Assembly: GCA_000632805.1 (NCBI GenBank)
Contig: CP007444.1
Location: 1,984,001-2,048,000 of the forward strand
Length of the DNA: 64,000 nucleotides
Source of the DNA: Dyella jiangningensis
Lineage (GTDB): Bacteria > Pseudomonadota > Gammaproteobacteria > Xanthomonadales > Rhodanobacteraceae
Reading direction: 5' to 3'
The position numbers and the translations under genes are program-made. Shown here one piece after another: positions 18,648-55,875 of the stretch (position 1 is its first letter; each line of letters opens with the position of its first letter). The notes below the pieces were generated by a model. It was not told where the DNA came from. It searched no databases and saw only the letters and a list, made by a program, of their open reading frames with translations.

Positions 18648-18685
18648 GGCTATTTGTGCCCATCCCCCGACTCTATAAAATAAGC
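18648..18685 (+). repeat. Left terminal inverted repeat of the transposon
   Basis: Reads inward GGCTATTTGTGCCCA...ATAAAATAAGC (38 bp). It differs from the right copy at positions 24 and 25 only. Its last base is also the last base of the tnpA stop codon on the opposite strand. Confidence 0.88.
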
Positions 18686-21600
18686 TATAAAAAGCTTTTT
18701 ACATCAATGCCTTGGCGGGAGTTCTGGCCCGTATTGAACTCATTGGTGCCATGCCCCGCCTCGTTCCAGTTGACCAAGTCCACCAGCCGCGCCGCTAACG
18801 CATCCAGATCGACGCTCGTTTTGCCGGGAGTGAACTCGAAGGTGCCAAACAGATTGATGTTTTGCCAAGCCACCGGCGACATGCCCTTGAGTATTTCGAT
18901 GGCTCCCTCGTCTTCCACTGCACGCTTTTGATCATAGATACGGGACAGCAACGCGGTGTTGTAGTAGATGATCGCATTGGCGATCAGGCGCGAGCAGTCG
19001 TTCCAGATCTGCTGCTCTGCTTCCGTTTGTACGCGGAATTTTCCGCTATTGACGTAGGCGATCGCCCGGCGGAAACGATGGTAGGCCTCGCCTCGATTGA
19101 GTGCCTTCTGGACGCTCTGGCGCAATCCGACATCGTCGATGAAATCGAGGATATAGAGCGTCCGGTAGATGTTGTCCAGCTCCCACAGGGCTTTCTTGGT
19201 CTGATTTCGACGGGCATAACTACTCAGCTTGCGGATGATCGTGGCCTGGGTCACCTCCTTCTGTCCCAGTGACGCCATGATCCGCTGGATATTGGGCCAT
19301 TCGGCCACGATCAGCGCCTCATTGACCTTGCGTGCTGGCTTGATGAGCGCACTGCCGTACTGATTCGGTGACTTGAAACCGACCAACGAATCGACCTTCG
19401 TTCGCAGATCGCGGTAGCGCGGCGCGAAGCGATAGCCGAACGCGTGCAACACCCAGAAATTGACCTGGTTGGTGCCGTGGGTGTCGGTCGAATGCTGTTC
19501 GGGCTTGACCTCGGACGTATTGTTGAACAACAAGTCGAACACGTAATGGCTCTCGTGCTCGTGGGCACCGATGACCTGCCCGTTGATCGGGACATGATTG
19601 GCCACCACCGTGCACACGCTGACACCCTTTTTCATGCCGAAATACTTCGGTGAGTGCCGTGCATTGATCGTGTCGATTTGAGTTTCGATCCGCTGACCGT
19701 CGCTGCTCGAATGCAAATGGTTGCCGATATTGAAAAGATGGAACGCCGACAACCGAGCGGTGGCGTTGCTGATGGCATCGTTAGCGCCGCGTACGGTTTC
19801 CTGGCGCAGGAAGCTACGGGCGGTGGACAGCAACGAGGCGTGACTGAGACCGGAGACTTCGGCCATCTTCCACAACCCCATGTTGGTACCCATCGCGACA
19901 ATGCAGGCAAGAATCTCGCGAGGATCCGGCGCCTGTTTGACGTAGCGCTCCAGCACGTGCGAAAACGCATCCAGAAACCCGGTATTTCCCGCCACAAACC
20001 AGAGTAGATCGGCAATGCCGATGCCCGGCATTTGCGCGTAGAACGGGTTGTTGAGGGACTCGTCAAGCGCGGGATAGATCAGATTCCAGCGCCGCTTGTC
20101 GCCTTTGCCACGCACCGTGATATGCGCATTGTCACCCTCGGCAATGCGGGCGTTCACCGCTTGATACTTCGCTTCCAGCTGAGTGCGTAGCGCCGTCAAG
20201 GTATCCTCAATAGGGGCTTGCAGAATGGGGGCATCGAGGTCACGTAACACCGCCTCCTTGTCGTTCCAGCGCTCATCGCTGATCAAATCATCCTCGAAGC
20301 GACGAAATTCGTTGCTGTCCTTGACGAACACATCCCCCGCTTCCATCGCCTCGTAGAGCAGGCGATAGACGAGAAACTCGTAGCGATCGACGTCGAGTCG
20401 CTTGGCGCGGCCCTTGCCCTCTTCGGCGACGAACAGATAACCACGCAATCGTTTGGGGATCAGGTCGACCGGAAACGTGGCCCGATCGATCTGTCGCGGG
20501 GTATGCCCCAGTCGCAGGTGGCCTTGCAGGAAGTCGACGGCCGCCATGAGTGGCGCATGTTCGACCCGGCCAGCGAAATCCAGATCGGTGAACAAGTGGC
20601 GCAGGTTTCGCTTGAAGGTTGGCGACAGCGTGGTGTAGTACGCCCACTGGAAACCCACCTTGTCGAAGGCGATGTTCCGCATGTAGTCGGCCACCAGCGG
20701 AATGCGTTCGGGACCAAGATAGCTGAACGCCTTGGCTTTCACCGTCGCGAACACTGCATCGTCAGGAATCGTGTCGTCGACAAACAGGTGAAGCACCTCA
20801 CCGGCGGCCTTGAGGTGTTCGCTCGCGTCCGTCAGTGCTTGCCGCATCGCTTCTTCACTGGCCAGCTTCGCCTGCTTGCCGTAGCCATCGACGCGAACCA
20901 TGAAGGCTTCGATCAAATGGTCGTTGATCTGCCGGTAGCGGTGATAGGCGAAACACAACAGGTACAGCCGCGTGGTGGCCGGTGCCATACGCTGAAGCTT
21001 GTAGACGGTGTAGTACATCACCAGGGAAGAAAAGTACTTACCGCTCTCCTGCGAGATGCCTGCCGCTGCCAGGAACTGCTGAGCAAACGTATGCAACGGC
21101 TGAAAGAGCTGACGTCGTTCAACTTCTTGTTTGAGCGCCTTGTAACTGAAATCGTTGGGTTCGTGCTTGAGCGCGCTGATCCGATACACGGATTCATCGG
21201 CCTGCAGCAAGGTGTCGAGCTGAGTGCGTATATCGGGCGTCAGCGCCTGTTCCAGTAAGCGCGCTAATCGCGTGCGCTCGTGGGTGACCACCCAACCGAT
21301 GATGTCCTGAAAGGTACTGTACGCGGGTGTGGCGAAGCGCTCTCGTTCCACGTAATGGAGCGCTTCGCGCAGCAGGTAGCGAGGTTGCGTCGAGCGCATG
21401 GCCAGATGCTGGAGGCGCTCGACCAGTGCTCCTCGCGCAGACCGGCTCCATGGGTGAACATCCAACAACTGCAGAATGAGCTTCTGCAGCGCGGCACGCG
21501 TCGGTTGCGTGGGGGATCGAACGGTCTTCCAGGCAATATCCGGAAAATGCCGGGTGACGATATGCTGCACATCCTCGCGCACCGCTTCCGGCTCAACGTC

Positions 21601-21807
21601 GAAAAACTGCCTCTTGGCTTTGAAATAGCCTAATTGCAGTACCAGATACACGCCGGTTGTACCGCGGCGCATCGCTACCGCCGCTTGTTCGGCGGCACTC
21701 AGGTCGAAGTACAGAAGCCGCTCGTCGTCAGTGAATTGTGGCAGGCCGTAGAGGTCATCGATTTCTTCGCTGGCGAGGATGGCCAGTCGGTGTGGATTAG
21801 TCGTCAT
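18685..21807 (-). CDS. tnpA: Tn3-family transposase TnpA
   Basis: 1040 residues, in the usual 950-1050 range for Tn3-family transposases, which cut and join the 38-bp ends during replicative transposition. The DUF4158 N-terminal region (FTDDERLLYFDLSAAEQA) and the C-terminal DDE domain are visible. Marks include HSTDTHGTNQVNFWVLHAFGY, FAPRYRDL and the Glu region LNRGEAYHRFRRAIAYVNSGKFR. The frame is uninterrupted, so the enzyme is likely active. The start codon overlaps the end of the tyrosine recombinase gene by 11 bp, giving a recombinase-transposase operon. The stop codon touches the left terminal repeat. Confidence 0.97.
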   Translation of the reverse strand: MTTNPHRLAILASEEIDDLYGLPQFTDDERLLYFDLSAAEQAAVAMRRGTTGVYLVLQLGYFKAKRQFFDVEPEAVREDVQHIVTRHFPDIAWKTVRSPTQPTRAALQKLILQLLDVHPWSRSARGALVERLQHLAMRSTQPRYLLREALHYVERERFATPAYSTFQDIIGWVVTHERTRLARLLEQALTPDIRTQLDTLLQADESVYRISALKHEPNDFSYKALKQEVERRQLFQPLHTFAQQFLAAAGISQESGKYFSSLVMYYTVYKLQRMAPATTRLYLLCFAYHRYRQINDHLIEAFMVRVDGYGKQAKLASEEAMRQALTDASEHLKAAGEVLHLFVDDTIPDDAVFATVKAKAFSYLGPERIPLVADYMRNIAFDKVGFQWAYYTTLSPTFKRNLRHLFTDLDFAGRVEHAPLMAAVDFLQGHLRLGHTPRQIDRATFPVDLIPKRLRGYLFVAEEGKGRAKRLDVDRYEFLVYRLLYEAMEAGDVFVKDSNEFRRFEDDLISDERWNDKEAVLRDLDAPILQAPIEDTLTALRTQLEAKYQAVNARIAEGDNAHITVRGKGDKRRWNLIYPALDESLNNPFYAQMPGIGIADLLWFVAGNTGFLDAFSHVLERYVKQAPDPREILACIVAMGTNMGLWKMAEVSGLSHASLLSTARSFLRQETVRGANDAISNATARLSAFHLFNIGNHLHSSSDGQRIETQIDTINARHSPKYFGMKKGVSVCTVVANHVPINGQVIGAHEHESHYVFDLLFNNTSEVKPEQHSTDTHGTNQVNFWVLHAFGYRFAPRYRDLRTKVDSLVGFKSPNQYGSALIKPARKVNEALIVAEWPNIQRIMASLGQKEVTQATIIRKLSSYARRNQTKKALWELDNIYRTLYILDFIDDVGLRQSVQKALNRGEAYHRFRRAIAYVNSGKFRVQTEAEQQIWNDCSRLIANAIIYYNTALLSRIYDQKRAVEDEGAIEILKGMSPVAWQNINLFGTFEFTPGKTSVDLDALAARLVDLVNWNEAGHGTNEFNTGQNSRQGIDVKSFL

Positions 21808-22774
21808 CGTGCCCTATATACAAAGGGATAGGCTCGTTGAGCCCGCGTTCGATGCGGGCTTGCGCGAAGGGATCGTCTCCATCGATATAGCGCATGGCCG
21901 AATGCACATCCTTCCAGCCGACGTACTCCATCAGGGCTTTGACATCCCATCCGTTGGTATTGGCCCATCCCGCAAACCCGCGGCGCAGCGAATGGCCGCT
22001 GTAAACCTCGACGGCGGCGAGGCCCGCACGCGTGAACAGGCGGCGAAGCATCGGCACCACGCTATTCTCGTGCAAGGCGCGGACGGACACCGTACCTGTC
22101 CGCGTGATCGCGCGAAATAGCGGCCCCGTCGTCAGGCCTGCATATCCGATCCAATCCAGCGTCGCGGTCACCGGGCACCACCGGCTCAAGGCGGGAACGC
22201 GATACGTGGTGCCTACCTGTTGGCGATCGGTCTTGGTGCGCGTGAGAAAACACGTGAGCCCCTGACCAGGCACCACGGCGACGTGTTCGGTCTGCAAGCT
22301 CACCAAATCGTCGATGCGAAAACCGCGCCAGAAACCGAGCAGCAACAGGGCGCGATCGCGCCGACAGCGGAGCGCTTCAGGGGCGTCGCCGTGCGCATCC
22401 GCTGCGACAATGGCGGCATCGAGCCAGTCTGCGACCCGGGCAAGGACAGTCAGCTGCAGAGGTTCGGCGCGTTTCTCCCTGGCCGGATGGAGTGCCTGAA
22501 TGCCCTTCATGGTCTTCTTGACGAGGTCCGCAGTCGTCGGATCGACGAACCCGTGGGTAGCGTGCCATTGCGCCAAGGCGGCCAGGCGCAGGCGAAGTGT
22601 GTTGATCGATAGCGATGTGGCGTAGGTGACGAGATAGTCCGCCACGGTCTGCGATGTGGCCGGCAGAAGCCCCCCCCACGTCACTTCGAAATGACGTACC
22701 GCCGAGGCGTAGCTTCGCTGCGTGTTGGGCCGCTGCGCCGCCTTCAGATACTGTTCGAGCGAATGTGATGACAT
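21797..22774 (-). CDS. Tyrosine recombinase, probable cointegrate resolvase (TnpI-like)
   Basis: 325 residues. The N-terminal SAM-like core-binding domain (SLEQYLKAAQRPNTQRSYASAV, then TLRLRLAALAQWH) precedes a catalytic domain. Active-site residues: Arg in LLLGFWRGFRIDDL, His-x-x-Arg in SGHSLRRGFAGWA, the His/Trp position in YVGWKDVHSAMRY, where the final Tyr is the nucleophile. Tn3 elements that lack a serine resolvase use such enzymes (TnpI of Tn4430, TnpS of Tn4651) to resolve cointegrates. Its overlap with tnpA supports that role. A candidate core site lies 97 bp upstream of the start. Confidence 0.92.
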   Translation of the reverse strand: MSSHSLEQYLKAAQRPNTQRSYASAVRHFEVTWGGLLPATSQTVADYLVTYATSLSINTLRLRLAALAQWHATHGFVDPTTADLVKKTMKGIQALHPAREKRAEPLQLTVLARVADWLDAAIVAADAHGDAPEALRCRRDRALLLLGFWRGFRIDDLVSLQTEHVAVVPGQGLTCFLTRTKTDRQQVGTTYRVPALSRWCPVTATLDWIGYAGLTTGPLFRAITRTGTVSVRALHENSVVPMLRRLFTRAGLAAVEVYSGHSLRRGFAGWANTNGWDVKALMEYVGWKDVHSAMRYIDGDDPFAQARIERGLNEPIPLYIGHDDD

Positions 22775-22967: not shown

Positions 22968-24242
22968 TCAAAGCGGCATGGCAATGGCGTCAAGCCCCTT
23001 CATGCCCGTGCCAAAACGCGCTATGGCCTCGCGATGGGCCATTAGGGCGCCATAAGGTAGATAACGTAGATCCAGCTCGTGCACGCGACTGAAAGCCGGG
23101 CGTGCGAATTGCGCGCGAACATCGCTTTCACGAGCATCCGGTGCCACCAGGAAGTAGCGCGCGTCCGCGTGATCCGGCGCACCGAGCGCAAGATCAAGCA
23201 TCCGCACAATGCCCGAGTAAATACTCGTAGTGTGTTCGACTTCAAAAGCCGCCGCGACACGCTTCGTGCCTCGGTCCAGCCATAGCACGTCGATCAAGCG
23301 AATCGCATCTGCGGCGCGATGTTCTTCTAACGCGAGTGGCAAACAATGCAGACAACCGTCGTCAAGCCGGCTCTCCCCGTGAGTTCGGCTACGGTCATTG
23401 GCAGCAATCCATACGTCGTAACCCAGGGCCCGCCCTAAATCGCGCAACCAACCCTGCACCTGGGTATGGGTGTGATCCTGATCGCGAGCCAGCTCCATCG
23501 CCTTACGGTGAGCGGCGTTTTCCTCCCTGATGCGCGCCAAATCGGCTTCCCATCGGCTGAGCGCGTCCGGCGCATCATCTGCCAGTGGCAAGGGGTAGCG
23601 TCCGCTACCCATGTCAAAGAGAAAGCCAGCGATCGCCCCCAGGTCGTTGGACAAGCGCGTGCGGTGCGCGGCGTTGAGCGCGAGCACGCCCTCGCGCATG
23701 GCCAAGTAGGCATCCCAGCGACCGAGCTTCACCTTGGCGCCAGTCAGCGCGTTGTAACCGTTGACGATGGCGGTATTGAATGGCACAGCCAAGGTGGGAT
23801 GCAGAAAGTACAGAAGGTTGGCGACCGCAGGCCCCAGACCCTTGATGCCCTGCCGATCCAGCGCATGAACCGCCTGGATGAGTTCGGCCTCGTCGTTGCC
23901 GCATAGGCAGGTGTTGAGAAAGCGGCCGAACGCCTGCTGATTGCCGCGATGCTCATAGATGTCGGGAATACGCAGTTTGGGTTTCCACAGGAACGCATGG
24001 TCGGCCCCGCGAAAAATCTGTCGTTGCTCGGCGATCGAGTGAACCACGGTTTCCAGGGAGGAGCCACGGTAGGCGTTGCCGAAGGTGTCGGTCTCGATCT
24101 CCGCGACCACGGCTTGCAGCCCGCGCCGGATGGCCCGGAAGTTCTTCAGTCGCTGATCCCATAGGAACCAGCTTTGGTAGGTACCGCCCGCGTCCTCCCG
24201 CCAACGCTCGATCAGCCGAACCACGATCTCATGCGATGCCAT
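22968..24242 (-). CDS. Putative nuclease: HhH-like N-terminus with PD-(D/E)XK-like C-terminus
   Basis: 424 residues. The middle segment LDRQGIKGLGPAVANLLYFLHPTLAVPFNTAIVNGYNAL resembles a helix-hairpin-helix DNA-binding unit of glycosylase type. The C-terminal part has LIDVLWLDRGTKRVAAAFEVEHTTSIYSGIVRMLDL, where Asp followed by FEVE and TTS recalls the catalytic core of PD-(D/E)XK nucleases (Asp ... Glu-x-Glu/Lys), and then YFLVAPDARESDVRAQ. I do not recognise a named family. It is on the same strand as the recombinase and transposase (193 bp gap) and is separated from the divergent copper genes by 96 bp. It could be an accessory defence nuclease of the element or a type II-like restriction enzyme without a methylase. 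Confidence 0.75.
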   Translation of the reverse strand: MASHEIVVRLIERWREDAGGTYQSWFLWDQRLKNFRAIRRGLQAVVAEIETDTFGNAYRGSSLETVVHSIAEQRQIFRGADHAFLWKPKLRIPDIYEHRGNQQAFGRFLNTCLCGNDEAELIQAVHALDRQGIKGLGPAVANLLYFLHPTLAVPFNTAIVNGYNALTGAKVKLGRWDAYLAMREGVLALNAAHRTRLSNDLGAIAGFLFDMGSGRYPLPLADDAPDALSRWEADLARIREENAAHRKAMELARDQDHTHTQVQGWLRDLGRALGYDVWIAANDRSRTHGESRLDDGCLHCLPLALEEHRAADAIRLIDVLWLDRGTKRVAAAFEVEHTTSIYSGIVRMLDLALGAPDHADARYFLVAPDARESDVRAQFARPAFSRVHELDLRYLPYGALMAHREAIARFGTGMKGLDAIAMPL

Positions 24243-24338
24243 GCTTGCTCCCTAAGGCGGCCTTATCACGATATTCAACCATCCTACACACCGGTCGGCG
24301 CAGGCTCTTGATGGTTTGCCACTTTCATGGAGGTCGCG

Positions 24339-24695
24339 ATGAAGACCATCAACGTAACGGGATATGGGCGGTTCGGCCCCCTGGCGTTGGGCCTGATGTT
24401 GGCGAGTGGTCTGGCGACGGCCCAGGATATGCCGCCAGGGGCACCGCAGACGCCCGCTCCCACCGGCGCCATGCACGATCAGCAAGGAATGGAGGGGATG
24501 AAAGGCATGCATGATGCCCATATGCAGGGCATGCACACCATGCCGGCTACCGTGTCGGCGGTCGATGCCAAGACGGGCGTGGTGGATGTCACCGCAGCCG
24601 GCATGCCATTAAAGGTCCATTTTCCGCCGTCAAGCGTCGCGTCGCTGAAAGCCGGGGACCAGATCACTCTGCACCTGGGTTTCAGTAAACCCTGA
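24339..24695 (+). CDS. Periplasmic Met/His-rich copper-binding protein
   Basis: 118 residues from ATG 24339, with GGAGG upstream. A signal peptide (LALGLMLASGLATAQ) is followed by a Met/His-rich stretch (GAMHDQQGMEGMKGMHDAHMQGMHTM), a typical Cu(I) ligand array. A small beta-rich domain resembling CusF-like folds follows (ATVSAVDAKTGVVDVTAAG, LKAGDQITLHLGF). It is the first gene of the rightward copper cluster. Its probable role is to buffer copper in the periplasm or pass it to efflux or oxidase proteins. Confidence 0.8.
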   Translation: MKTINVTGYGRFGPLALGLMLASGLATAQDMPPGAPQTPAPTGAMHDQQGMEGMKGMHDAHMQGMHTMPATVSAVDAKTGVVDVTAAGMPLKVHFPPSSVASLKAGDQITLHLGFSKP

Positions 24696-24754
24696 GACAG
24701 CTACACCCACCTCCAGAGTTGAGGGGTGGTATAGCGAAGGGTAAGCTGGCCCTT

Positions 24755-25168
24755 ATGACGGCATCCTTGCGCCCCTTTGCACGCTCCCGTGGCCTTCGCG
24801 TCATGGCGGTGTGGGCGTGGCTGATGCTGATCATCACCTCCTTATCCGCCGCCCCTTTGGCTGGAAGCACGGTCGCTGCACCATCCCATCACCACCACGC
24901 CGTCACGGCCATGGCCGGTGATCATTGCCACCATGGCGTGGCAGCAACCGCTAAGACGTCATTCGATTGTTGCTCTTCCAGGGCAGGCTGCTGTGGTGGT
25001 CCTGTGGGCCACACCTGCAGCTGCGCGGCCATGTGCGGCACGGCGTTACCGCCTGACTCCGCCACCGTCACGGCCGCTACCACGATCACCGCGGCTTACG
25101 GCCGTGTGGCGAGGCCCAACACCCCCTCTTTGGCGGCCGCGCCGCCGTTACGACCACCGTCCGCCTGA
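24755..25168 (+). CDS. copL: CopL-like Cys/His-rich protein
   Basis: About 137 residues. A signal or anchor helix (VMAVWAWLMLIITSLSAAPLAG) is followed by HHHH and a Cys/His cluster (DHCHHGVAATAKTSFDCCSSRAGCC, then HTCSCAAMC). The ending PLRPPSA resembles Xanthomonas CopL, encoded immediately upstream of copA and needed for copper-dependent induction of the operon. The order here (copL, copA, copB, copM, copG) is the same. The start is uncertain: ATG 24755 is listed; a TTG at 24719 is an in-frame alternative. Confidence 0.72.
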   Translation: MTASLRPFARSRGLRVMAVWAWLMLIITSLSAAPLAGSTVAAPSHHHHAVTAMAGDHCHHGVAATAKTSFDCCSSRAGCCGGPVGHTCSCAAMCGTALPPDSATVTAATTITAAYGRVARPNTPSLAAAPPLRPPSA

Positions 25169-25275
25169 CACTCCCTGTCGATGAGCCTTGCTCGCGTGTC
25201 GCCGTATCGGTGACGTATGGCAAGTGGCAGTGATTGGCGACGACGCACGACGTCGTTCGCCTTGGAGAGTTGGCA

Positions 25276-28211: not shown

Positions 28212-28223
28212 GGGGAATCCATC

Positions 28224-45649: not shown

Positions 45650-46920
45650 AACGTTGGGGCTATGTCATCGCTATCGTGGCGCTTGCCACGGGCTTGCTGA
45701 TCGTGGGCTACCTGGCCGGTCACCACGGCGCGCCCAACGAGATGGCCGCATCGCCGTCACCTGCTGCCGACGCGAACGCCGAGAAGAAAGTGCTCTATTG
45801 GTATGATCCGATGATTCCGGATCAGCACTTCGCCAAGCCGGGCTTATCGCCCATGGGTATGCAGATGGTGCCCAAGTACGCCGATAGCACCGACCGTTCC
45901 GGTACTCGGATTGACCCGGCCACGTTGCAGAATCTGGGCGTGCGTACCGCAACCGTCGAGCGACGCGTTTTGGCGGAATCCATCATCGTTCCGGGCACGG
46001 TCACTTGGGATTTGCGACAGGCCATCACCGTGAGTGCGCGAGTGGATGCCGTGGTGGCCCGGCTCGACGTGCGGGCACCCTACACAACCGTCGAGGCTGG
46101 CACCCCGTTAGTCGCCCTTCTGGCTCCGCAATGGAGCGGCGCACTGGCCGAATACCAGGCGCTGCAACAGGCCACCTCAGTCGATGCACGTGCCTTGCGT
46201 GCCGCCGCTCGCGAACGGTTGCGGATCCTGGGACTTAGCGACGCCGATCTCCGTGCTGCTGGTCGTGATGGCGCGTCGATCACCGTTCATGCGCCTCAGA
46301 CGGGTATCGTGACCTCGCTGGAGGTTCGTGAAGGCCAGCGCATTAACGCGGGACAGACTCTTATGACACTCAACGGATTGAGTACGGTCTGGGTCGAGGC
46401 CGCCTTACCGCAGGCGGTGGTCGGCACTGTCGGTCCGGACACACCAGTGGCCGTGACGGTCAGTGCGGCGCCCGGCCGGACCTTCCAGGGACGTGTCGAA
46501 ATGTTGTTACCCGACATCGATCCGGCGACGCGCACCCAGCGCGCTCGCATCGTGTTAACCAACTCGGACGGTGCCTTGAGCCCTGGCATGTTCGCCACGG
46601 TGACTTTGGCGCCTGAGCGCGGAGCACCAGTGCCCGTGATCCCGGACCAGGCGTTGATCACCACCGGCAACCATACGCGTGTGATCGTGGCCGATGGCGA
46701 TGGGCGCTTCCACCCCGTGGCCATACGGGCTGGCCGATCCACTGGCGGTATGACCGAGGTGCTCGAAGGGCTGCGAGGGAACGAAAAGGTGGTGGTGTCA
46801 GGGCAATTCCTGATCGACTCGGAAGCCAGCCTGTCGGGTGGGCTGGAGCGCCTGGATGCCCGTGCGACGCCGCCGACACCGGCCAGCACCGCCTCCATGC
46901 CGATGGGAGAGGGTCGATGA
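45646..46920 (+). CDS. cusB: RND efflux periplasmic adaptor (CusB type)
   Basis: 424 residues, ATGA overlap with cusC. A membrane anchor ([19 protein letters not shown]) precedes a heavy-metal-binding domain ([27 protein letters not shown]) as in CusB, then the barrel-sandwich/lipoyl part ([20 protein letters not shown]), helical hairpin and beta-barrel ([15 protein letters not shown]). The Met residues fit Cu(I)/Ag(I) transfer from CusF to the pump. The last codons overlap the cusA start. Confidence 0.94.
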
Positions 46921-49900
46921 TCGCCGCGCTGATCCGTACCGCGATCATCTATCGCGTGTTTGTTCTATTGGCTGCGTTGGTCTTGGCCACGCTCGGCGTG
47001 TGGTCGCTGCAGCGCACACCGATCGACGCCCTGCCGGACCTTTCCGACACTCAGGTGATCATTCGCACCAATTGGCCCGGTCAGTCGCCGCAGATCGTGG
47101 AAGACCAAGTGACCTATCCGCTGGCCACCACGATGTTGTCGGTGCCGGGCGCCCGCACCGTCCGCGGTTACTCCTTCTTTGGCGACTCCTACGTTTACGT
47201 GCTGTTCGACGAGCACACCGACCTGTACTGGGCACGCTCGCGCGTGCTGGAGTACTTGAGTCAGGTGCGCGATCGCCTGCCGGCCGGCGTCAATCCCGCG
47301 TTGGGGCCTGACGCGACCGGCTTGGGGTGGATCTACGAGTACGCGCTGGTCGATCGCACCGGCCGACACGATCTGGGGCAGTTGCGCGGCCTGCAGGACT
47401 GGTTCCTGCGCTATCAGCTCAAGACCGTTCCGGATGTCGCCGAAGTGGCCAGCCTGGGTGGCATGGAGCGCGCCTGGCAGATCACCCCCGACCCGCAGGC
47501 ATTGGCAGCCCGGAGTCTGACCGTGGCCCAAGTCGTCGAGGCGGTGCGCGCCGCCAATGGCGCCAACGGTGGCTCGGTGATCGAGCAAGGCGAGGCAGAG
47601 CTCATGGTGCGCAGCGAGGGCTATCTCCGCAGCCAGCAGGATTTTGAGAACATCCCCCTCGGAACGAATAAAGATGGCGTGCCGGTTCGGTTGCGCGATG
47701 TGGCCTCGGTACGGCGCGGACCGACGTTCCGACGCGGCATCGCCGAACTGGATGGCCAGGGGGAAGTGGCCGGCGGCGTCATCGTGCTGCGTTCAGGCAA
47801 GAACGCGAAAGCGGCGATCGAGGCAGTCAAGGTCAAGCTCGGCGAACTGCAGCGCAGCCTGCCCGACGGCGTGACGATTGTTCCCACTTACGATCGCGCG
47901 CAGTTGATCGATGCTGCTGTCGACAACCTGCGGGGCAAGCTGCTGGAGGAATTCCTGGTTGTCGCCTTGGTATGCGTGCTGTTCCTCAGCCATCTGCGCT
48001 CGGCTCTGGTGGCAGTGATCACGCTGCCCTTGGGGGTGTTGGCCGCCTTCATCGTGATGCATTTGCAAGGCGTATCGGCGAACTTGATGTCGCTGGGCGG
48101 CATCGCCATCGCCATCGGCGCCATGGTGGATGCCGCCGTCGTCATGATCGAAAACGCACATAAGCATCTGGAACACTGGCGTGACGCACATGACGGCCAG
48201 GAACCGCAAGGACCGGCGCGTTGGTCGCTGATGGCGGAAGCGGCGGCGGAAGTCGGCCCAGCGCTGTTCGTTAGCCTACTGATCATCGCGCTCTCGTTTG
48301 TACCCGTGTTTGCGCTGGAAGCGCAGGAAGGGCGGCTGTTCAAACCCTTGGCCTTCACCAAGACCTATGCCATGGCGGCCGCCGCAGGCTTGGCCATCAC
48401 CCTGGTGCCGGTGCTGATGGGGTACCTAGTGCGTGGACGCATTCGTGCAGAGCGTGACAACCCGCTCAACCGCGGCTTGATCGCGTTATACCGGCCGATT
48501 CTAGAACGGGTCTTGCGCTATCCGAAAGTCACCCTGGCGCTAGCTGGTGTGCTGCTGGTGAGCGCGTGGTGGCCGCTGAGCCGTCTCGGTAGTGAGTTCA
48601 TGCCGCCGATGGCGGAAGGAACCCTCCTGTATATGCCCACCGCCTTACCCGGGCTCTCCGCCGGCAAAGCCGCGCAACTACTGCAGCTCACCGATCGCAT
48701 GATCAAGACAGTGCCGGAAGTTGACCACGTGTTCGGCAAGGTCGGGCGAGCCGAAACTGCGACAGACCCGGCGCCGCTGGAGATGTTCGAAACAACCATC
48801 ACCTTCAAGCCCAAAAACCAGTGGCGCCCAGGGATGACCATGGACAAGCTCAAGGCCGAACTCGATCGGGCGGTGAAAGTGCCGGGGTTGACCAATCTGT
48901 TCGTGCCACCGATCCGCAACCGCATCGATATGCTCGCTACCGGCATCAAGAGCCCGATCGGTATCAAGGTGCTTGGTTCGGATGCCACGACTTTGCAGAC
49001 GGTTGCGGACCAGATCGAAACCGTGGCGCATGGCGTGCCCGGTGTCAGCTCCGCCATCGCGGAACGGGCGGCCAGCGGTCGTTATGTCGACGTCCGGATC
49101 CGTCGAGACGATGCGGCGCGCTATGGGCTGACCCAGCAGGAAGTCCAAGAGTTGATCGCCACCGTGGTTGGCGGTGATGCCATCGGGCAGACCGTCGAAG
49201 GCCTGGAACGCTATCCGATCGTGGTGCGCTATCCGCGAGCGGCGCGTGATTCTCTGGCTGCGCTGAAAGCCTTGCCGATCGTGGCAGCCAATGGCGCGCA
49301 ATTGACACTCGATCAGGTGGCCGATATCCAGGTCGCGGCCGGACCGCCCATGCTCAAGAGCGAAAATGGCCGCTTGGCCACGTACGTCTATGTCGATACT
49401 GCTGGCCGCGATTTGGGTGCCGTGGTCACCGACCTGCAGCATGCGGTTGCGCAACAGGTCACCTTGCCGCCTGGCACGACCATCGCCTGGTCAGGTCAGT
49501 TCGAGTACCTGGCGCGCGCGATGAACCGATTGGCATTGGTGGTACCCACTGCGCTGGTAATCATCTTCGGCTTGATCTACGCCGTGTTCCGCCGAATGAG
49601 CGAAGCGGCGTTGATCATGGCCAGCGTACCGCTTGCCCTGGTCGGCGGGCTCTGGCTGATTTGGGGCCTGGGCCATGCGGTCTCAGTGGCCACCGCGATC
49701 GGGTTCATTGCGCTCGGTGGCGTCGCGGCGGAGTTCGGAGTAGTCATGCTGCTGTACCTTCATCACGCCTGGGATCGGCGATGTGCGATCGATCCGCATG
49801 CCGGCGTGGTGGCGCTGGATGACGCGATCCGCGAAGGGGCTGTCCAGCGCGTGCGGCCCAAGGCTATGACGGTCGCAGTGATCCTCGCGGGCCTGTTCCC

Positions 49901-50054
49901 GATCCTGCTGGGCCATGGTGCCGGATCGGAGGTCATGCAGCGCATTGCCGCGCCAATGGTCGGTGGCATGGTGACCGCGCCGTTGCTCTCGATGCTTGTG
50001 ATTCCTGCGGCGTTCCAGCTTCTCGTGCGGCGACGTCTCCAACAGAGCCGCTGA
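46917..50054 (+). CDS. cusA: Heavy-metal RND efflux pump (CusA type)
   Basis: 1045 residues, the standard length for HME-RND pumps. TM4 shows [19 protein letters not shown], the proton-relay motif of the HME group. Copper/silver pumps carry three Met residues in the periplasmic cleft; matching positions appear in [23 protein letters not shown] and [15 protein letters not shown], supporting Cu(I)/Ag(I) rather than Co/Zn/Cd. With CusC and CusB it forms a tripartite pump through the cell envelope driven by the proton gradient. The frame is intact. Confidence 0.95.
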
Positions 50055-50139: not shown

Positions 50140-51006
50140 TCAACGGCGTTCGAAATAGTAGCCGCCGTAGTTTTCAACAGCGTGGTCCCACTCGAACGGT
50201 ATTCGCATGCACCTGTCCAGTTTCCAGCTATCCCGTACTCGGTAACCTCGAGCCTCCATGTCGGAAGTCAAACGGCCTATGGACTCGATGCGATAAGGGC
50301 AAATAGCGATCCCCAGGTTCTGTAGGGTAAAGAAAGATTTGTCGGCGTGCAGTGGAATCAGATTGAGAAGTACGTGACGCGGCGGCTCTGGAAGCTGGTC
50401 AATTAACCAGGGGAGTCGATACGGCAGGTATTGGAGGGCGCCGGTACTAAAGACCAGGTCGCACCCGCTTGCGGCCTGAGGCCTATCGGCAAATGTCAGG
50501 GTGCCATCCACCCCACGTGCACTGGCCAGTGCACGGCCCGCTGTCACAACGTGCGGCAAGTCGTGCACGCACCACGCCAGATCCGTCGGGTATTGGATGT
50601 GATGGCTGAATCCGTAGTAAGCCAATCCCAGATGGCCGCCGAGGTCAAAAACCTTTCGTCCACCGGACTCCATAATGTGCTTCAGCCAGAACATCGCGGG
50701 ATAATCGCACGCGCGGAGCGATTGGATCTGATCGAGGTATTTGCCCGCCGCCTCTTGGACATCGTAGGTGGCCGGTAGCTTAGCCGATGCCAAGTGCCGA
50801 GCTTTTGCCAAGGCCTGCTCATACGATGGATAGACGCCGAAGTACAGATTTCCACGACGGAATGGGCGCCGAAAATACCGCTCGTAAAGCGGTTTGGCAA
50901 AAATCCTGATAACCGGCAGCTCCATGGTTTCGCCCACGACACGGGCAAGAGCTTCACGTACCTGGTAAGGCTGCCCTCCGAGAAATTTTGTGCTAACGCC
51001 CACCAT
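50140..51006 (-). CDS. TIGR04325-like putative methyltransferase
   Basis: 288 residues. The SAM-binding signature is in GRKVFDLGGHLGLAYYGF, followed by WCVHDLPHVV and CDLVFSTGALQYLPY and a C-terminal WDHAVENYGGYYFERR. N-terminal ARYFGVYPSY-like context (RGNLYFGVYPSYEQALAKARH) matches TIGR04325 proteins, which occur in polysaccharide or O-antigen loci. It is the second gene of a leftward pair, 31 bp after the adenylate-forming ligase gene, and converges on cusA. It is not related to metal resistance as far as can be seen. Confidence 0.83.
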   Translation of the reverse strand: MVGVSTKFLGGQPYQVREALARVVGETMELPVIRIFAKPLYERYFRRPFRRGNLYFGVYPSYEQALAKARHLASAKLPATYDVQEAAGKYLDQIQSLRACDYPAMFWLKHIMESGGRKVFDLGGHLGLAYYGFSHHIQYPTDLAWCVHDLPHVVTAGRALASARGVDGTLTFADRPQAASGCDLVFSTGALQYLPYRLPWLIDQLPEPPRHVLLNLIPLHADKSFFTLQNLGIAICPYRIESIGRLTSDMEARGYRVRDSWKLDRCMRIPFEWDHAVENYGGYYFERR

Positions 51007-51037
51007 GCCTCCTTTGCCAAGCGGACAGCATGCTTGC

Positions 51038-52396
51038 CTAAGCCAGCTCAGATACCGTTACACGTCGTTTGCCGCTACGTGTGAGCGGTATATCGTCGAC
51101 GAAATGGCAATCTAGCGAAATCTGCTCGCCCAGCACCTTGCTGGTTTCATACCGAATGACTTCAATGGCGCTGTCGTCAAAGTTCGTGCCGCGCACGATC
51201 GACAGATCCAGTCGATCCAGGCGTCGCTGGATGACCTGAAAACGTTCAATGCCAGGAATGTCTTTCAGTAAGTGAGGGAAAAACTCTCCCGGCAGACAGC
51301 GCCCGTCGACTGTGCGAATCGCATCCAGCACGCGGCCATCTACACGACTGAGCAAGGGAAGTCCACGGCCACACGAGCATGCGCCGTTAACCGCAGTGGC
51401 CAGATCGCCGTTAACATATCGCAACAGCGGCATGCCGTAGTTGAATAAGTCGGTAATGGCCACCTCACCGGGCTGGCCGGTCTGCACGAGGCCTTGCGGC
51501 CCTATCAACTCAACCACCAGATGATCGGCATTCACGTGCAAGCCCTGGCGTTGCGCGCACTCAGCCGCAATCAGCATGACCTCGCGGCAGCCATAGGTGT
51601 TGTATACAGGGCAGCCAAAGGCTTCCTCAATGAGTGTTCGCTGAAATTCATGCAAGGCTTCCGCCGCGCCGAGAATGGCCTGGGGGCGATGAATGGTGCG
51701 GTTGTTGTCCAACATCCACTGGGCGAGTCGCATCAGTGGCCCGACATAGGACACGATGATCTCAGGCCGGTATCGGTCCACGGCCTCGGCATAGTCTGCC
51801 AGCGTGGCTTCGCTCAACTGAAAGCTGTCGAGCATGGTTCTGGCGAACACCCGGTTGTAGAGTCGATCCTTGATTTGCTGCGCGCGCACCGGCTTTCCCC
51901 CCACCATGCCGGCCCACAAGTAGAGCGTGCGGCGACCCATGCGCGAACCGGCCCAACCGTAGCCGCGCCACATCACGGCGGTGCGACGATCATTGCTTTC
52001 GCGGGTGTAGCCGAAGCGTAGCGGTTCTCCCGTAGATCCGCCGGTCGCCTTGTAGAGCAGGCGATCACGCCAGGATGCCGCCTTGAGGTCCTCAAAATGA
52101 TGGCGAATGTCGGCTTTGGTGAGCGGAGGCAGCCTGGCGTAGTCATCCAGGTTGCGGATATCGGCGACGGAGATGCCCAGTTCGCGCCAGCGGCGCTGGT
52201 AGAAGGGAACCTCACGTTCGCAGTGCACCAACAGCTGCTTCAACCGGGTCCATTGCAACGCCATTATTTTTTCGGGCGCTAACCATTGGTCACGTTCGTA
52301 GTCGGCGAGCCAGCTCAAGGTGTGGCGACGCCGCAGACCGGTCTCATAGGCGGGATAGAGAACACGCTGAAAAAGGGTTTCGTATAAGCGACCCAC
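51038..52396 (-). CDS. Adenylate-forming ligase of the phenylacetate-CoA ligase/CapK family
   Basis: 452 residues. ANL-superfamily marks: the phosphate-binding loop YKATGGSTGEPLRFGYTRES, YGCREVMLIAAEC (A5-like region), YVNGDLATAVNGACSCGRGLPLL (Cys-rich signature typical of PaaK/CapK) and the C-terminal GKRRVTV. It would activate a carboxylic acid as an acyl-adenylate and transfer it to CoA or another acceptor. No aromatic-degradation genes accompany it; the partner is a methyltransferase on the same strand, so a biosynthetic role is more likely. Confidence 0.9.
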   Translation of the reverse strand: MGRLYETLFQRVLYPAYETGLRRRHTLSWLADYERDQWLAPEKIMALQWTRLKQLLVHCEREVPFYQRRWRELGISVADIRNLDDYARLPPLTKADIRHHFEDLKAASWRDRLLYKATGGSTGEPLRFGYTRESNDRRTAVMWRGYGWAGSRMGRRTLYLWAGMVGGKPVRAQQIKDRLYNRVFARTMLDSFQLSEATLADYAEAVDRYRPEIIVSYVGPLMRLAQWMLDNNRTIHRPQAILGAAEALHEFQRTLIEEAFGCPVYNTYGCREVMLIAAECAQRQGLHVNADHLVVELIGPQGLVQTGQPGEVAITDLFNYGMPLLRYVNGDLATAVNGACSCGRGLPLLSRVDGRVLDAIRTVDGRCLPGEFFPHLLKDIPGIERFQVIQRRLDRLDLSIVRGTNFDDSAIEVIRYETSKVLGEQISLDCHFVDDIPLTRSGKRRVTVSELA

Positions 52397-52661
52397 GGAT
52401 ACCCCTCAGGACCTTGCGGCCATTCCTAGAGATGCCGCCGATTGTCGGTCATCGCGGCTGGCATTTAACTAAGGAATCCTGCCTATGCCCTTAGGCCTGT
52501 CTCCTTGTCCTTCTGAGCCCATGGGTGCGCTTTTTGGGGCATGATTTCGATCAAGCCAATGAACTCCCTGAGGTTGCGCCTGGGATTGGCGCTCGATGAC
52601 CAGGGGCGACGCATGACGGAACGCGCTACAGCCGCATGGCCTCTCAAATTTGGGGATTCGC

Positions 52662-53576
52662 GTGGATAAACAGGTCGCCACTACCGGTTTTCTCGGCGAT
52701 ACCAAGCGTCGGGACTACGCGCGCAAGCTGTCTCAGTTCAACCGCTTCGCGGCGGCGGAATTGCATGGCGCGATAGCCAGCTTGGCCATCACGCCGGGTG
52801 CACGCATCCTGGATGCGGGGTGCGGCACCGGAGAGGCACTCCTGTGGTTACGGGAGGCGGCAGGCGATACGGGCGTGATCGTCGGCGTCGACTTGGCCGC
52901 GCCACATCTGGCCATGGCGCAGAGGCAGGTACCGATGAGCGTCCCTGTGATTCAGGCGGATCTGACTATGCCGCCATTTCAGGAAGGGGCCTTTGATCTC
53001 ATCTGGTCGATCAACACTCTGAACCATCTGCGCGACCCATTGGTGGGCGTGAAGGTGCTGGCACGCCTGCTACGACCAGGTGGTCGAGTGGCCTGGGGGC
53101 AAAGCACACTCCTACCGGACAAGTATTTTGCGTGGGACGCGCGGTTGGAGCGGGTGATCAATGAAGCCGTTCGGCAGTACTACCGCGACAAATATGGCCT
53201 GACCGAACAGGATCTGACCGCGACACGGGCACTGGTGGGCGTGCTCCGACGGGCAGGCTTGCGCGACGTACATGTGCGAACAATCGCTATTGAGCGAACG
53301 TTTCCCTTGGAGGTGAGCCATGAGGCTTACGTGCTGGAAACCATTTTTCGCGGGACGTGGGGCGAGCGATTGCGTCCGTATCTAGCCGCCCGGGATTACG
53401 CGGAGCTAGCACAGCTGTGCGATCCCTGCCATGCGCGTTTCGCGCTTCGACGGCCCGTTTTCATTTTCTACAAACCTTCACATTGGCTGTTGGGCGGGTC
53501 TAAGGGCGCCTATCCGGAGCTGGGCACGGACCATGTCGCGAATGGGCTGATTCATAGTCTGAAAGAGGGTTCCTAG
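52662..53576 (+). CDS. Class I SAM-dependent methyltransferase
   Basis: 304 residues from GTG 52662 (GGGG upstream). The Rossmann core is clear: ITPGARILDAGCGTGEALLWL (motif I), VIVGVDLAAPHLAMAQ, FDLIWSINTLNHLRDP and VLARLLRPGGRVAWGQS. The extended C-terminal part (TFPLEVSHEAYVLETIF) is unlike UbiE. It is transcribed divergently from the ligase gene across a 265-bp gap, so the three may form one divergent unit. A TTG at 52650 is an alternative start. The substrate is unknown. Confidence 0.88.
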   Translation: MDKQVATTGFLGDTKRRDYARKLSQFNRFAAAELHGAIASLAITPGARILDAGCGTGEALLWLREAAGDTGVIVGVDLAAPHLAMAQRQVPMSVPVIQADLTMPPFQEGAFDLIWSINTLNHLRDPLVGVKVLARLLRPGGRVAWGQSTLLPDKYFAWDARLERVINEAVRQYYRDKYGLTEQDLTATRALVGVLRRAGLRDVHVRTIAIERTFPLEVSHEAYVLETIFRGTWGERLRPYLAARDYAELAQLCDPCHARFALRRPVFIFYKPSHWLLGGSKGAYPELGTDHVANGLIHSLKEGS

Positions 53577-53826: not shown

Positions 53827-54087
53827 GCCGAGGCCCTCTCAAGCCGGGGGCGACGAAGCGGCGTTGTAAGGCGATGTTTGCGTAAGTGGGTCATGGCGAA
53901 TCCTTGCGAGATGAACGCGATCGTCTTTAGGTGCAGTCGCTCCGCTGCTTGGTAGCCGAAAGACGCCGGGAGCCATCCGGTTGAATTGCGGCATCCTTGC
54001 CGACGGGGGCGGCGCGCGGCCATGGAAGCAGATCTGCCTTTTTTCGTACTGATTTCCACGCTCCGTGCCGGCAATGGACCCCTGAGG

Positions 54088-54110
54088 CGGGATAATCCAA
54101 CATTATCCCG
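54088..54110. promoter_or_regulatory. 9-bp perfect inverted repeat, candidate recombination or operator site
   Basis: CGGGATAAT / ccaac / ATTATCCCG. The geometry (9-bp arms, 5-bp spacer) suits a tyrosine-recombinase core site like the rst sites of TnpS/TnpT transposons, or an operator; it lies 96 bp upstream of the KfrA/TnpT-like gene. Confidence 0.5.
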
Positions 54111-54153
54111 TGTCACTTTCCCTGTCTTGAAATCTGAATGTACGCTGTTGAGT

Positions 54154-54205: not shown

Positions 54206-55225
54206 ATGGCGCGCGCCGGCCTGTACAAAACGGAAGTCCAGAAAGCCCGCAACAGCCTCATCGCGCAGGGCAAGCACCCCTCGGTGGACGCGATTCGCGT
54301 CGCCCTGGGCAACACCGGTTCCAAGAGCACCATCCACCGCTACTTGAAGGAGCTGGAGGCGGAGGCCGCAGCACCGCCCTCCGCCGGCGTGGCGATCAGC
54401 GACGCGCTGCGGACGCTGGTGGCCCAGCTGAGTGCCCAGCTGACCGGGGAGGCCGACACGCGGATCGCCGAAGCCCAAGCCCGTTGCGATGCCTCCGTGC
54501 AGAAAGCCACCGAAGCGCTGGCCACCCAAGAGCGCGAAGGCCGAGCGCTGAGCGATCGCCTGCAGCGCACGGAGACCGCTTTGCAGCAGGAGGCACAGGC
54601 TCATCAGGTTACGACCGGTGCGCTGCAGGAGCGCCATACGCAGGTAAAGGCCCTGGAAGAGCGGGTCGCGGGCCTGGAGGCGCGGTTGGCGGAACAGGCG
54701 ACCCACATTCAGTCCCTCGAGCAGAAGCACAGCCAGGCGCGCGAGGCGCTGGAGCATTTCCGGCAGTCCGCGAAGGAGCAAAGGGATACGGAATCGCGCC
54801 GCCACGACCATCAGGTGCAGACCTTACAGGCGGAACTGCGCCAAGCCCAGGAGCTGGTGAACGGCAAGAATCAGGAGCTTTTGCAGCTCAATCGCGACAA
54901 CGCGCGACTCACCGAGCTGCATGGCCACAGCGACCACGCGCTGCGCACGCTACGACGAGAGCACGAGCAACTGGCCAAGGTCGCCCAGGAGGTGCCGGGC
55001 CTACAGCGGCAGGTGGAGGCACTTGGCCAGCAGGTCGTCCAGGTGACTTCAGAACGGGATCAGCTCCGCGACGAAGTGGATCGCTGCCTCACCGACTTGG
55101 CGGCCGAACGGAACGCCCGTCTCGCCGAAGTCGAGGAACGCCGGCGTGGCGAAACACGCCTACAAGCCATTGAGGAACTGCTGGCCCAACTCAGGCCCAA
55201 AGAGCCATCGCCGGAGGAGCCATGA
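54206..55225 (+). CDS. KfrA/TnpT-like DNA-binding coiled-coil protein
   Basis: 339 residues from ATG 54206 (AGGAGAGG upstream). Residues 1-55 form a KfrA_N-type DNA-binding domain (LYKTEVQKARNSLIAQGKHPSVDAIRVALGNTGSKSTIHRYL). The rest is a long coiled coil rich in Glu, Gln, Ala and Leu (LEERVAGLEARLAEQATHIQSLEQKH). Proteins of this build act as plasmid regulators (KfrA) or as the TnpT helper of tyrosine-recombinase resolution in Tn4651-type transposons. Its place at the right end of an element with a tyrosine recombinase favours the second role. Confidence 0.87.
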   Translation: MARAGLYKTEVQKARNSLIAQGKHPSVDAIRVALGNTGSKSTIHRYLKELEAEAAAPPSAGVAISDALRTLVAQLSAQLTGEADTRIAEAQARCDASVQKATEALATQEREGRALSDRLQRTETALQQEAQAHQVTTGALQERHTQVKALEERVAGLEARLAEQATHIQSLEQKHSQAREALEHFRQSAKEQRDTESRRHDHQVQTLQAELRQAQELVNGKNQELLQLNRDNARLTELHGHSDHALRTLRREHEQLAKVAQEVPGLQRQVEALGQQVVQVTSERDQLRDEVDRCLTDLAAERNARLAEVEERRRGETRLQAIEELLAQLRPKEPSPEEP

Positions 55226-55746
55226 AACATTCTGATTTCCACATCGGCCTTGAATTCGTGGGCAGCGCCGGCTTTCATTGGCGTTGCACCGATGTAGGCA
55301 CCCGGACCATTCTGGCTATCCAGCTCGATCGCAAGGATCCGCATTGGTACCGGGGACCGCCGTACATCGCTAAGGAGACGGTATTCGATGAGCATGAGAT
55401 CGAGCGCTGTCACTTGACCGAAACGGACGCGATCACGGCGGCGGCCCGTGAGCATAAAACGTCAGGCCATCCAGGCTATCCCAGCGAGGTTGTCGCGCAT
55501 ATGTTGAAGGCACGTCACCAGGACAAGGGAGGCCGTTATCCGTATGGAGGTGTGCTGCGTTTCGATCGGTGCCGGCCGGATGGCGAAATCCTCCATCCGT
55601 ATGCGGGACGCAAGGAAGGGGATGCCTGGGTGGTCGACCTATACCTACCGTTCCAGAACATCTACGACGTTATGGCAGAGCGGGATTTCATCGCTTTGCC
55701 CAGGGCCTCCGCGGAGGACATTCGTGTTCGAGCAGATCGGGATTGA
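55222..55746 (+). CDS. Conserved-looking protein of unknown function at transposon right end
   Basis: 174 residues, start overlapping the previous stop (ATGA). It is rich in aromatic, His and charged residues (GFHWRCTDVGTRTILAIQLDRKDPHWYRGPP, RYPYGGVLRFDRCRPDGEILHPYAGRKEGDAWVVDLYLPFQ). I recognise no catalytic motif. Translational coupling to the KfrA/TnpT-like gene and its position 92 bp from the right terminal repeat suggest a backbone gene of the transposon. Confidence 0.75.
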   Translation: MKHSDFHIGLEFVGSAGFHWRCTDVGTRTILAIQLDRKDPHWYRGPPYIAKETVFDEHEIERCHLTETDAITAAAREHKTSGHPGYPSEVVAHMLKARHQDKGGRYPYGGVLRFDRCRPDGEILHPYAGRKEGDAWVVDLYLPFQNIYDVMAERDFIALPRASAEDIRVRADRD

Positions 55747-55837
55747 TAGTGGGGCTTGATGGGGATCCGGCATGATCGAATGTCCGACGCCGTCAGTTGC
55801 GACGAAGATAAGCCATGGTTTTATAAGCTGTTTTATC

Positions 55838-55875
55838 GCTTATTTTATAGCATCGGGGGATGGGCACAAATAGCC
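55838..55875 (-). repeat. Right terminal inverted repeat of the transposon
   Basis: Plus strand reads GCTTATTTTATAGCATCGGG to GGCACAAATAGCC; 36 of 38 bases match the complement of the left end. Weak similarity continues inward (AT-rich ATAAAA blocks on both sides). Confidence 0.88.

What the first reader, a model, noticed from the sequence alone, without database searches (positions are those of the whole stretch)
18648..55875. Previously unframed 37.2-kb Tn3-family transposon delimited by 38-bp inverted repeats
The sequence at 18648-18685 reappears inverted at 55838-55875 with 36/38 identity, the standard Tn3 repeat length, and the left copy touches the tnpA stop codon. The interval holds backbone genes at both ends and copper/silver resistance plus unrelated cargo between. 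Tn3 elements this large with a tyrosine recombinase and a KfrA/TnpT-like gene at opposite ends are uncommon. The repeat does not begin with the textbook GGGG, which suggests a less studied branch.
Basis: partly seen in the sequence, partly recalled or inferred. Interest (0 to 1): 0.8.

Follow-up and report, generated by a model that had tools for sequence, protein, structure and literature searches.

The report
Chimeric copper-resistance Tn3 transposon, two copies

Summary
The repeats at 18648-18685 and 55838-55875 match 36/38 and are the only such pair in the window. The interval is a complete Tn3-family transposon. The genome holds a second copy, identical over 37,228 bp and inverted, 59,944 bp away. 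Neither copy has a direct target duplication, but their 5-bp flanks are reverse complements crosswise (TTGTA/TACAA, AAATA/TATTT): the published mark of intramolecular replicative transposition with inversion, which later recombination or misassembly would also leave. At one site, three related loci show the two flanks contiguous with a 5-bp overlap, so those ends are exact. The 'KfrA' gene is TnpT and the tyrosine recombinase is TnpS (Tn4651/TnXax1 type), with a conserved rst site. Cargo between tnpS and rst-tnpT is already published (TnXocp1). Less expected is the transposase: 22% identical to the TnXax1-family and Tn4651 ones, 58-66% to a branch with similar GGCTATTTTTGCCC-type ends, seen beside serine resolvases in 10 of 37 loci. 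TnpS/TnpT outside the Tn4651 subgroup is, however, mentioned in print. Related elements with other cargo occur in Rhodanobacteraceae. A new variant of a known kind.

The parts
18643..18647 (+). 5-bp flank TACAA, reverse complement of the TTGTA left of copy A (G000:C1:1905471-1905475)
18648..18685 (+). left terminal inverted repeat, at the tnpA end (similarity continues to 18692)
   Evidence: 36/38 to the right repeat; 43/46 ungapped; 4 genome-wide matches forming two pairs
18685..21807 (-). tnpA, 1040 aa, Tn3-family transposase; D703, D775 and E907 align with the DDE triad of Tn4430 TnpA
   Evidence: NF033527 E=2.6e-231; PF01526 and PF13700; alignment to Tn4430 TnpA, whose triad D679/D751/E881 is given in PMC9579193 (passage); residue numbers
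21797..22774 (-). tnpS, 325 aa, tyrosine recombinase overlapping tnpA; aligns with Cre through its catalytic residues (their roles recalled)
   Evidence: PF00589; 64% to the TnXax1-family TnpS, 56% to the pWW0 (Tn4651) TnpS; Cre alignment; motif positions
22968..24242 (-). orf424, type II restriction-enzyme-like passenger upstream of tnpS
   Evidence: PADLOC REase_II E=1.1e-16; no Pfam match above cut-off
24327..29731 (+). copper operon: multicopper oxidase CopA, CopB, c-type cytochrome-like protein, DUF411 protein, two small unassigned proteins
   Evidence: TIGR01480 and weak cytochrome matches; CopB PF05275 and DUF411 PF04214
30455..31528 (+). IS5-family transposase gene inside the cargo
   Evidence: NF033581
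32349..41769 (+). isoprenylcysteine-methyltransferase-like protein, metal P-type ATPase, UbiB-like kinase, DUF1269 protein, beta-CASP nuclease, thymidine/AMP phosphorylase, PRPP synthetase
42569..43831 (+). MFS transporter; similarity to tetracycline efflux models is weak and far below their cut-off
   Evidence: 45 bits against a cut-off of 475
44324..50054 (+). CusCBA-type copper/silver efflux system (outer membrane protein, adaptor, RND pump)
   Evidence: OEP PF02321; NF007303 below cut-off and TIGR00914 above it
50140..53576 (.). TIGR04325 methyltransferase (-), PaaK-like ligase (-), methyltransferase (+)
54086..54110 (+). rst core: inverted repeat GGCGGGATAAT-N5-ATTATCCCG
   Evidence: only in the two element copies in the whole genome
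54153..54186 (+). probable rst accessory site
   Evidence: aligned in the 6 elements compared; position counted from the start codon in that output
54206..55225 (+). tnpT (the 'KfrA-like' gene); conserved start ATG 54206, inside the longer ORF from 54167
   Evidence: KfrA_N PF11740; 49% to the TnXax1-family TnpT, 44% to the pWW0 TnpT; start
55222..55746 (+). orf174, unknown, overlaps the end of tnpT; tnpT runs to within about 65 bp of the repeat in G039 and G471, so it is absent there
   Evidence: no match
55838..55875 (-). right terminal inverted repeat, at the tnpT end
55876..55880 (+). 5-bp flank TATTT, reverse complement of the AAATA right of copy A

Best explanation
The interval 18648-55875 is a complete Tn3-family unit transposon that moves by replicative (paste-and-copy) transposition: TnpA pairs the GGCTATTTGTGCCC... 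ends, joins them to a staggered 5-bp target and leaves a copy behind; TnpS, helped by TnpT, resolves cointegrates at the rst site in front of tnpT. The element is modular: transposase and ends of one Tn3 branch, a TnpS/TnpT/rst module of the Tn4651/TnXax1 type, and copper/silver cargo between tnpS and rst-tnpT. In this genome it most likely transposed within the chromosome, leaving two identical inverted copies and flipping the 60 kb between them, which accounts for the crosswise inverted 5-bp flanks. Shown: the ends, the two copies, the flank pattern, one exact uninterrupted site, gene relationships, the rst sequence. Inferred: that the proteins are active, that one intramolecular event made both the copy and the inversion (about 0.5; the first two rivals dispute only this step), and that the pairing arose by module exchange. 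The confidence below is for identity and mode of action, not for that history.
For: Unique 36/38 terminal repeats. Copy A equals the reverse complement of copy B over 37,228 bp, with 59,944 bp between. Flanks: A TTGTA/AAATA, B TACAA/TATTT, the inverted pattern described for intramolecular transposition in trans in PMC5142620 (passages). The flanks right of A and right of B map next to each other with a 5-bp overlap in 3 of 3 related loci tested (own paralogue, G078, G198); the own paralogue was printed and shows TATTT once. Direct 5-bp duplications at relatives: G039 ACATA/ACATA, G471 TACAT/TACAT. TnpS 64% and TnpT 49% to a TnXax1-family element, TnpA 22%. rst aligned in 6 elements. TnpA tree: window with G471, G039 and Dyella 100/100, in a 19-row clade apart from the TnXax1-family and Tn4651 rows. 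10 of 37 related loci have a serine TnpR match about 160-200 bp upstream of tnpA; 1 of 37 (Dyella) has TnpS.
Against: The swapped flanks would look the same after recombination between two independently inserted copies, or if the assembler laid the 60-kb segment the wrong way round. No empty site was found for the TTGTA insertion: its left flank (725 bp) matched none of the other 19 genus genomes. Tn3-family target immunity (PMC9579193 passages) would be expected to disfavour a second insertion nearby. The tree has very long reference branches, and no ISfinder or TnCentral library was at hand, so the TnpA's named subgroup is not fixed. 26 of 37 related loci, several of them short contigs, show neither TnpR directly upstream of tnpA nor TnpS (2 of these, L044 and L068, have a TnpR match farther away). 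7 of 24 loci scanned show no similar end at 21/38. PMC7157771 (passages) says that several Tn163-subgroup members carry TnpS+TnpT and lists a Tn4651-subgroup element with TnpR, so swaps of resolvase between subgroups are known. The G066 match and the weaker G036 match to the end sequence had no tnpA of this kind in the 40 kb read.
Confidence: 0.85

Rival explanations
1. History only: two independent insertions, each with its own direct 5-bp duplication (TTGTA and TATTT), were followed by an inversion of the 60 kb through homologous recombination between the copies, or by TnpS/TnpT acting on the two inverted rst sites.
For: It gives the same end structure; 37 kb of perfect identity is ample for recombination; the two rst cores are inverted relative to each other.
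Against: It needs at least two events where intramolecular transposition needs one. No sequence feature found here tells them apart.
Confidence: 0.3
2. History only: the two copies are real with ordinary direct duplications, but the assembler chose the wrong orientation for the 60-kb segment, or the culture holds both orientations.
For: The identical repeats are 37 kb long, longer than many long reads; turning the segment round gives TTGTA/TTGTA and TATTT/TATTT (from the flanks). The genome is flagged with 8.39% contamination.
Against: The genome is a single contig. No reads were available either way.
Confidence: 0.2
3. The two 38-mers are unrelated repeats and the cargo is an ordinary genomic island.
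For: The window copy alone lacks a direct 5-bp duplication.
Against: The repeats occur only at the ends of two identical 37,228-bp blocks; related elements in G039 and G471 have the same ends and 5-bp duplications; one exact uninterrupted site was found.
Confidence: 0.01
4. It is an ordinary member of the Tn4651/TnXax1 subgroup, and its transposase is merely a divergent Tn4651-type TnpA; or it belongs to a subgroup in which TnpS/TnpT is already known.
For: TnpS, TnpT and rst are of that type. PMC7157771 reports TnpS+TnpT in several Tn163-subgroup members (passage).
Against: TnpA is 22% identical to the TnXax1-family and Tn4651 ones, but 58-66% (best segment) to most members of a branch with similar ends, 10 of 37 of them beside serine TnpR. 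The second half could not be tested: no Tn163-subgroup reference was at hand.
Confidence: 0.15

Closest known systems
TnXocp1 (TnXo19), with TnXop1, TnSml1 and TnPsd1
   Same: tnpA linked to tnpS, metal-resistance passengers between tnpS and rst-tnpT, rst core and accessory palindromes; 5-bp duplications at TnXocp1 and TnXop1 (PMC4619425 section 19 read)
   Different: TnXocp1 and TnXop1 ends begin with GGGG, and no ends were found for TnPsd1 and TnSml1 (same section); here they begin GGCTATT. The paper gives TnXocp1 TnpA as 41% identical to TnXax1's, ours is 22% to a TnXax1-family TnpA. TnXocp1's own sequence was not compared here.
TnXax1 (a TnXax1-family element on a Xanthomonas euvesicatoria plasmid, L072)
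   Same: TnpS 64%, TnpT 49%, same rst core and accessory site, divergent tnpT-tnpS
   Different: No cargo between tnpS and tnpT; transposase only 22% identical; TnXax1 ends begin GAGG (PMC4619425)
Tn4651 (genes taken from pWW0; that Tn4651 lies there is recalled)
   Same: TnpS 56%, TnpT 44%, rst layout, large cargo between backbone parts
   Different: tnpT-rst-tnpS kept together, tnpA about 49 kb away next to tnpC; transposase 22% identical
Unnamed Tn3-family elements on Klebsiella pmS2H7-GES24 and Rhodanobacter plasmids
   Same: TnpA 64-65% identical; a similar end behind tnpA in the Rhodanobacter one
   Different: No TnpS/TnpT of this type found in them; pmS2H7 has a serine recombinase about 1.2 kb upstream of tnpA and no similar end at 22/38 or better; no resolvase was identified in the Rhodanobacter stretch
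IS3000 and Tn4401
   Same: Nearest named transposases among the 60 rows listed of 5000, 34-35% identical
   Different: Outside the 19-row clade of this TnpA

Membership tests
Tn3 family | Large (about 1000 aa) DDE transposase | tested here: met
   1040 aa, NF033527 770 bits over a cut-off of 500; PF01526 over its full length; DDE triad aligned to Tn4430
Tn3 family | Terminal inverted repeats of about 38 bp bounding the element | tested here: met
   36/38, unique pair
Tn3 family | 5-bp target duplication | tested here: met
   Not direct at either copy as assembled; inverted 5-bp pairs across the two copies; direct duplications in G039 and G471; 5-bp overlap of the flanks in 3 uninterrupted loci
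Tn3 family | Replicative transposition through a resolvable cointegrate | not testable with these tools
   Needs experiment; two identical copies are consistent with it
TnpS/TnpT/rst resolution system (Tn4651 type) | TnpS tyrosine recombinase and TnpT helper, divergently transcribed | tested here: met
   64%/49% to a TnXax1-family element, 56%/44% to pWW0; divergent, but about 31 kb apart
TnpS/TnpT/rst resolution system (Tn4651 type) | rst site with core and accessory inverted repeats between tnpS and tnpT | tested here: met
   Aligned in 6 elements; core only in the two copies genome-wide. Activity not tested.
Tn4651 subgroup (by transposase) | TnpA groups with Tn4651 and TnXax1 | tested here: not met
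   22% identity; separate clade in a 29-row tree with long branches
Branch with GGCTATTTTTGCCC-type ends | TnpA clade plus similar ends | tested here: met
   100/100 clade of 19 rows; a similar end behind tnpA in 17 of 24 loci scanned, 12 beginning GGCTA
Named ISfinder/TnCentral subgroup of this TnpA (e.g. Tn163, Tn3000) | Placement among curated references | not testable with these tools
   No ISfinder or TnCentral library was available; two accessions tried for references were not held

The most novel reading that the evidence does not exclude
A Tn3 lineage of the Rhodanobacteraceae is a stable hybrid of two major branches: transposase and ends from a branch otherwise seen beside serine resolvases, resolution from TnpS/TnpT. 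The gap next to rst serves as a loading bay in which cargo is swapped wholesale while both ends stay fixed, possibly by TnpS/TnpT recombination between rst sites of different elements.
Probability: 0.3. Interest if true: 0.5.

Novelty: new variant of a known kind. Interest (0 to 1): 0.32.

Why it matters
It suggests that transposase and resolvase modules can be exchanged between distant Tn3 branches and still spread, and gives a defined hybrid for testing whether TnpS/TnpT works with a foreign transposase. It also documents a large metal-resistance transposon that copied itself within a chromosome, apparently flipping 60 kb, with 5-bp flank signatures that can be looked for in other genomes.

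Tried and rejected
Direct target duplication at the window copy: tested and absent; explained only once the second copy was found. A cointegrate with two direct copies was considered and rejected because the copies are inverted. Empty site of the TTGTA insertion: the flanks were searched separately in 20 genus genomes (own included); the A-left flank matched only its own genome, the B-left flank gave partial matches in 5 others, within the stretch that holds the HTH gene; undecided. GC skew as a test of the segment's orientation was uninformative. A literature search for four forms of the end sequence found 0 papers; one for Tn3, Rhodanobacter, transposon and copper found one paper, whose listing looked unrelated and which I did not open. 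I claim absence from print only for those searches. No structure prediction was run.
Full report
Observation. The repeats at 18648-18685 and 55838-55875 match in 36 of 38 positions, and no other 38-mer in the window reaches 24 of 38 to either of them. An ungapped comparison extends the match to 43 of 46 and finds no other inverted repeat of at least 30 bp and 90% identity in the window, and none in 20 mononucleotide shuffles. In the whole 5,396,991-bp genome the outer 23 bases, with up to 3 mismatches, occur four times as two head-to-head pairs, with no control matches.

Second copy. The other pair bounds G000:C1:1905476-1942703. This block is the exact reverse complement of the window element over all 37,228 bp, and 59,944 bp lie between the two. 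The 5-bp flanks are TTGTA and AAATA for copy A, TACAA and TATTT for the window copy B. Neither copy has a direct duplication, but the left flanks are reverse complements of each other, and so are the right flanks. Turning the 60-kb segment round would give each copy a perfect direct duplication. PMC5142620 (passages seen) describes this pattern for intramolecular replicative transposition in trans: the DNA between is inverted, the new copy is inverted and the target duplication is inverted. Recombination between two inverted copies, or a misassembled orientation across 37-kb repeats, would leave the same pattern and cannot be excluded from the sequence.

Exact ends. The DNA right of copy A and right of copy B was mapped separately. 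In the three related loci tested (a paralogue in the same genome near 1953861-1953865, G078 and G198) the two flanks lie next to each other and overlap by exactly 5 bp by alignment coordinates; the own paralogue was printed and shows TATTT once. The ORF beside copy A matches positions 122-345 of a 346-position phage replication-initiation family, so the element appears to interrupt a prophage gene; the one window ORF tried beside copy B gave no match. For the other site, the left flank matched no other genome of the 20 searched in the genus, so that site rests on the 5-mers alone.

Backbone. tnpA (18685-21807, minus) is a full Tn3-family transposase. Its D703, D775 and E907 align with the catalytic triad of Tn4430 TnpA. 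tnpS (21797-22774, minus) overlaps it and is 64% identical to the TnpS of a TnXax1-family element and 56% to the pWW0 (Tn4651) TnpS; it aligns with Cre through the catalytic residues (their roles are recalled). The 'KfrA-like' gene is TnpT: 49% and 44% to the same two elements, with its conserved start at 54206. In front of it lies an rst site. The core at 54086-54110 and the accessory site at 54153-54186 align in all six elements compared: window, G039, G471, G036, the TnXax1-family element and pWW0. The core, with up to 2 mismatches, occurs only in the two copies genome-wide.

Layout. tnpS and tnpT are divergent, as in TnXax1, but about 31 kb separates them, with the rst site at the tnpT side. 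This is not new: PMC4619425 section 19 (read) reports passengers between tnpS and tnpT in TnXocp1 (18,767 bp) and similar structures in TnXop1, TnSml1 and TnPsd1.

Transposase branch. TnpA is 22% identical to the TnXax1-family and pWW0 (Tn4651) transposases. Its best plasmid relatives outside the family's own genomes are 64-65% identical. Of 37 genome loci, Dyella is 91%, most others 58-66% by best segment, two short pieces 71%, two 43% and one 27%. In a 29-row tree it forms a 100/100 group with G471, G039 and Dyella ginsengisoli inside a 19-row clade apart from the TnXax1-family and Tn4651 rows; several reference branches are very long, so deep joins are unsure. Of 24 loci scanned for the end sequence, 17 show a similar end close behind tnpA (12 of them beginning GGCTA), including loci titled Pyrinomonadaceae, Edaphobacter, Sulfopaludibacter, Chloroflexota and Cytobacillus; 7, the Klebsiella pmS2H7 locus among them, show none there. 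Of the 37 genome loci, 10 carry a serine TnpR match about 160-200 bp upstream of tnpA, 1 (Dyella) carries TnpS, and 26 show neither (2 of these have a TnpR match farther away). The element thus joins a transposase of one branch with a resolution module of the Tn4651 type. Such swaps are not unheard of: PMC7157771 (passages) says that several Tn163-subgroup members carry TnpS+TnpT and lists a Tn4651-subgroup element with TnpR. I could not place this TnpA in a named subgroup.

Relatives. The outer 23 bases occur in 5 of 197 family genomes (up to 3 mismatches) and in 5 of 398 order genomes (up to 2 mismatches); the two samples overlap. G039 carries an 18,628-bp element with duplication ACATA, and G471 a 37,865-bp element with duplication TACAT. 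Both have tnpA-tnpS at one end and tnpT at the other, and outside the backbone no DNA match to the window's cargo was found (for G471 rows above 150 bp were printed). G058 is Dyella ginsengisoli LA-4 by its matching 54,282-bp contig, family Rhodanobacteraceae; the window's host is placed in the same family by the tool but is unnamed. The contig stretch read from G058 holds tnpA and tnpS and one end. G036 has tnpS and tnpT 2.7 kb apart and no tnpA match in the stretch read; G066, and the second G036 place, showed no tnpA of this kind in the 40 kb read.

Cargo. A restriction-enzyme-like gene, a copper operon, an IS5-family transposase, a metal P-type ATPase cluster, CusCBA-type efflux, and three enzymes of unknown role. 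Of 66 plasmid records matching a 24,901-bp cargo query, none covers 80%; the top one covers 12%, at the copper operon of a Rhodanobacter plasmid.

Verdict. A real, complete and probably recently active Tn3-family transposon. It is filed as a new variant of a known kind because of its transposase/resolvase pairing and ends; its layout and size are not new. Interest is moderate to low.

Noticed in passing
G471:C1:2002202-2281090 (loci L102-L109; the middle was not read): The outer ends of a second element share the duplication CACTT although 279 kb apart. A 16.6-kb direct repeat with its own inverted termini inside suggests an unresolved cointegrate made by a nested Tn3 transposon.
   Followed up: partly
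L024 (Paraburkholderia pOLGA1), 9847-15262: A transposase of the same branch next to a DNA-binding gene and a tyrosine recombinase that give no match to the window's TnpT and TnpS: possibly another resolution system.
   Followed up: no
G000:C1:1942704-1943589 and 1952992-1954644; window 55876-56651: Two related segments with a phage-type replication-initiation gene in one genome, one of them interrupted by the transposon.
   Followed up: partly
window 22968-24242: A type II restriction-enzyme-like gene in the passenger position next to tnpS; no methyltransferase partner was searched for beside it.
   Followed up: no
window 33119-41769: Metal P-type ATPase, UbiB-like kinase, beta-CASP nuclease (best NCBIfam match Cas14 of type VII CRISPR, far below cut-off), thymidine/AMP phosphorylase and PRPP synthetase in one apparent operon.
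   Followed up: no
L020 9924-11068 (Xanthomonas campestris plasmid): A TnpT-like gene with an rst-like core in front of it and a copper operon behind it, suggesting a copper-carrying relative.
   Followed up: no
G000: The host genome is one contig but is flagged with 8.39% contamination.
   Followed up: no
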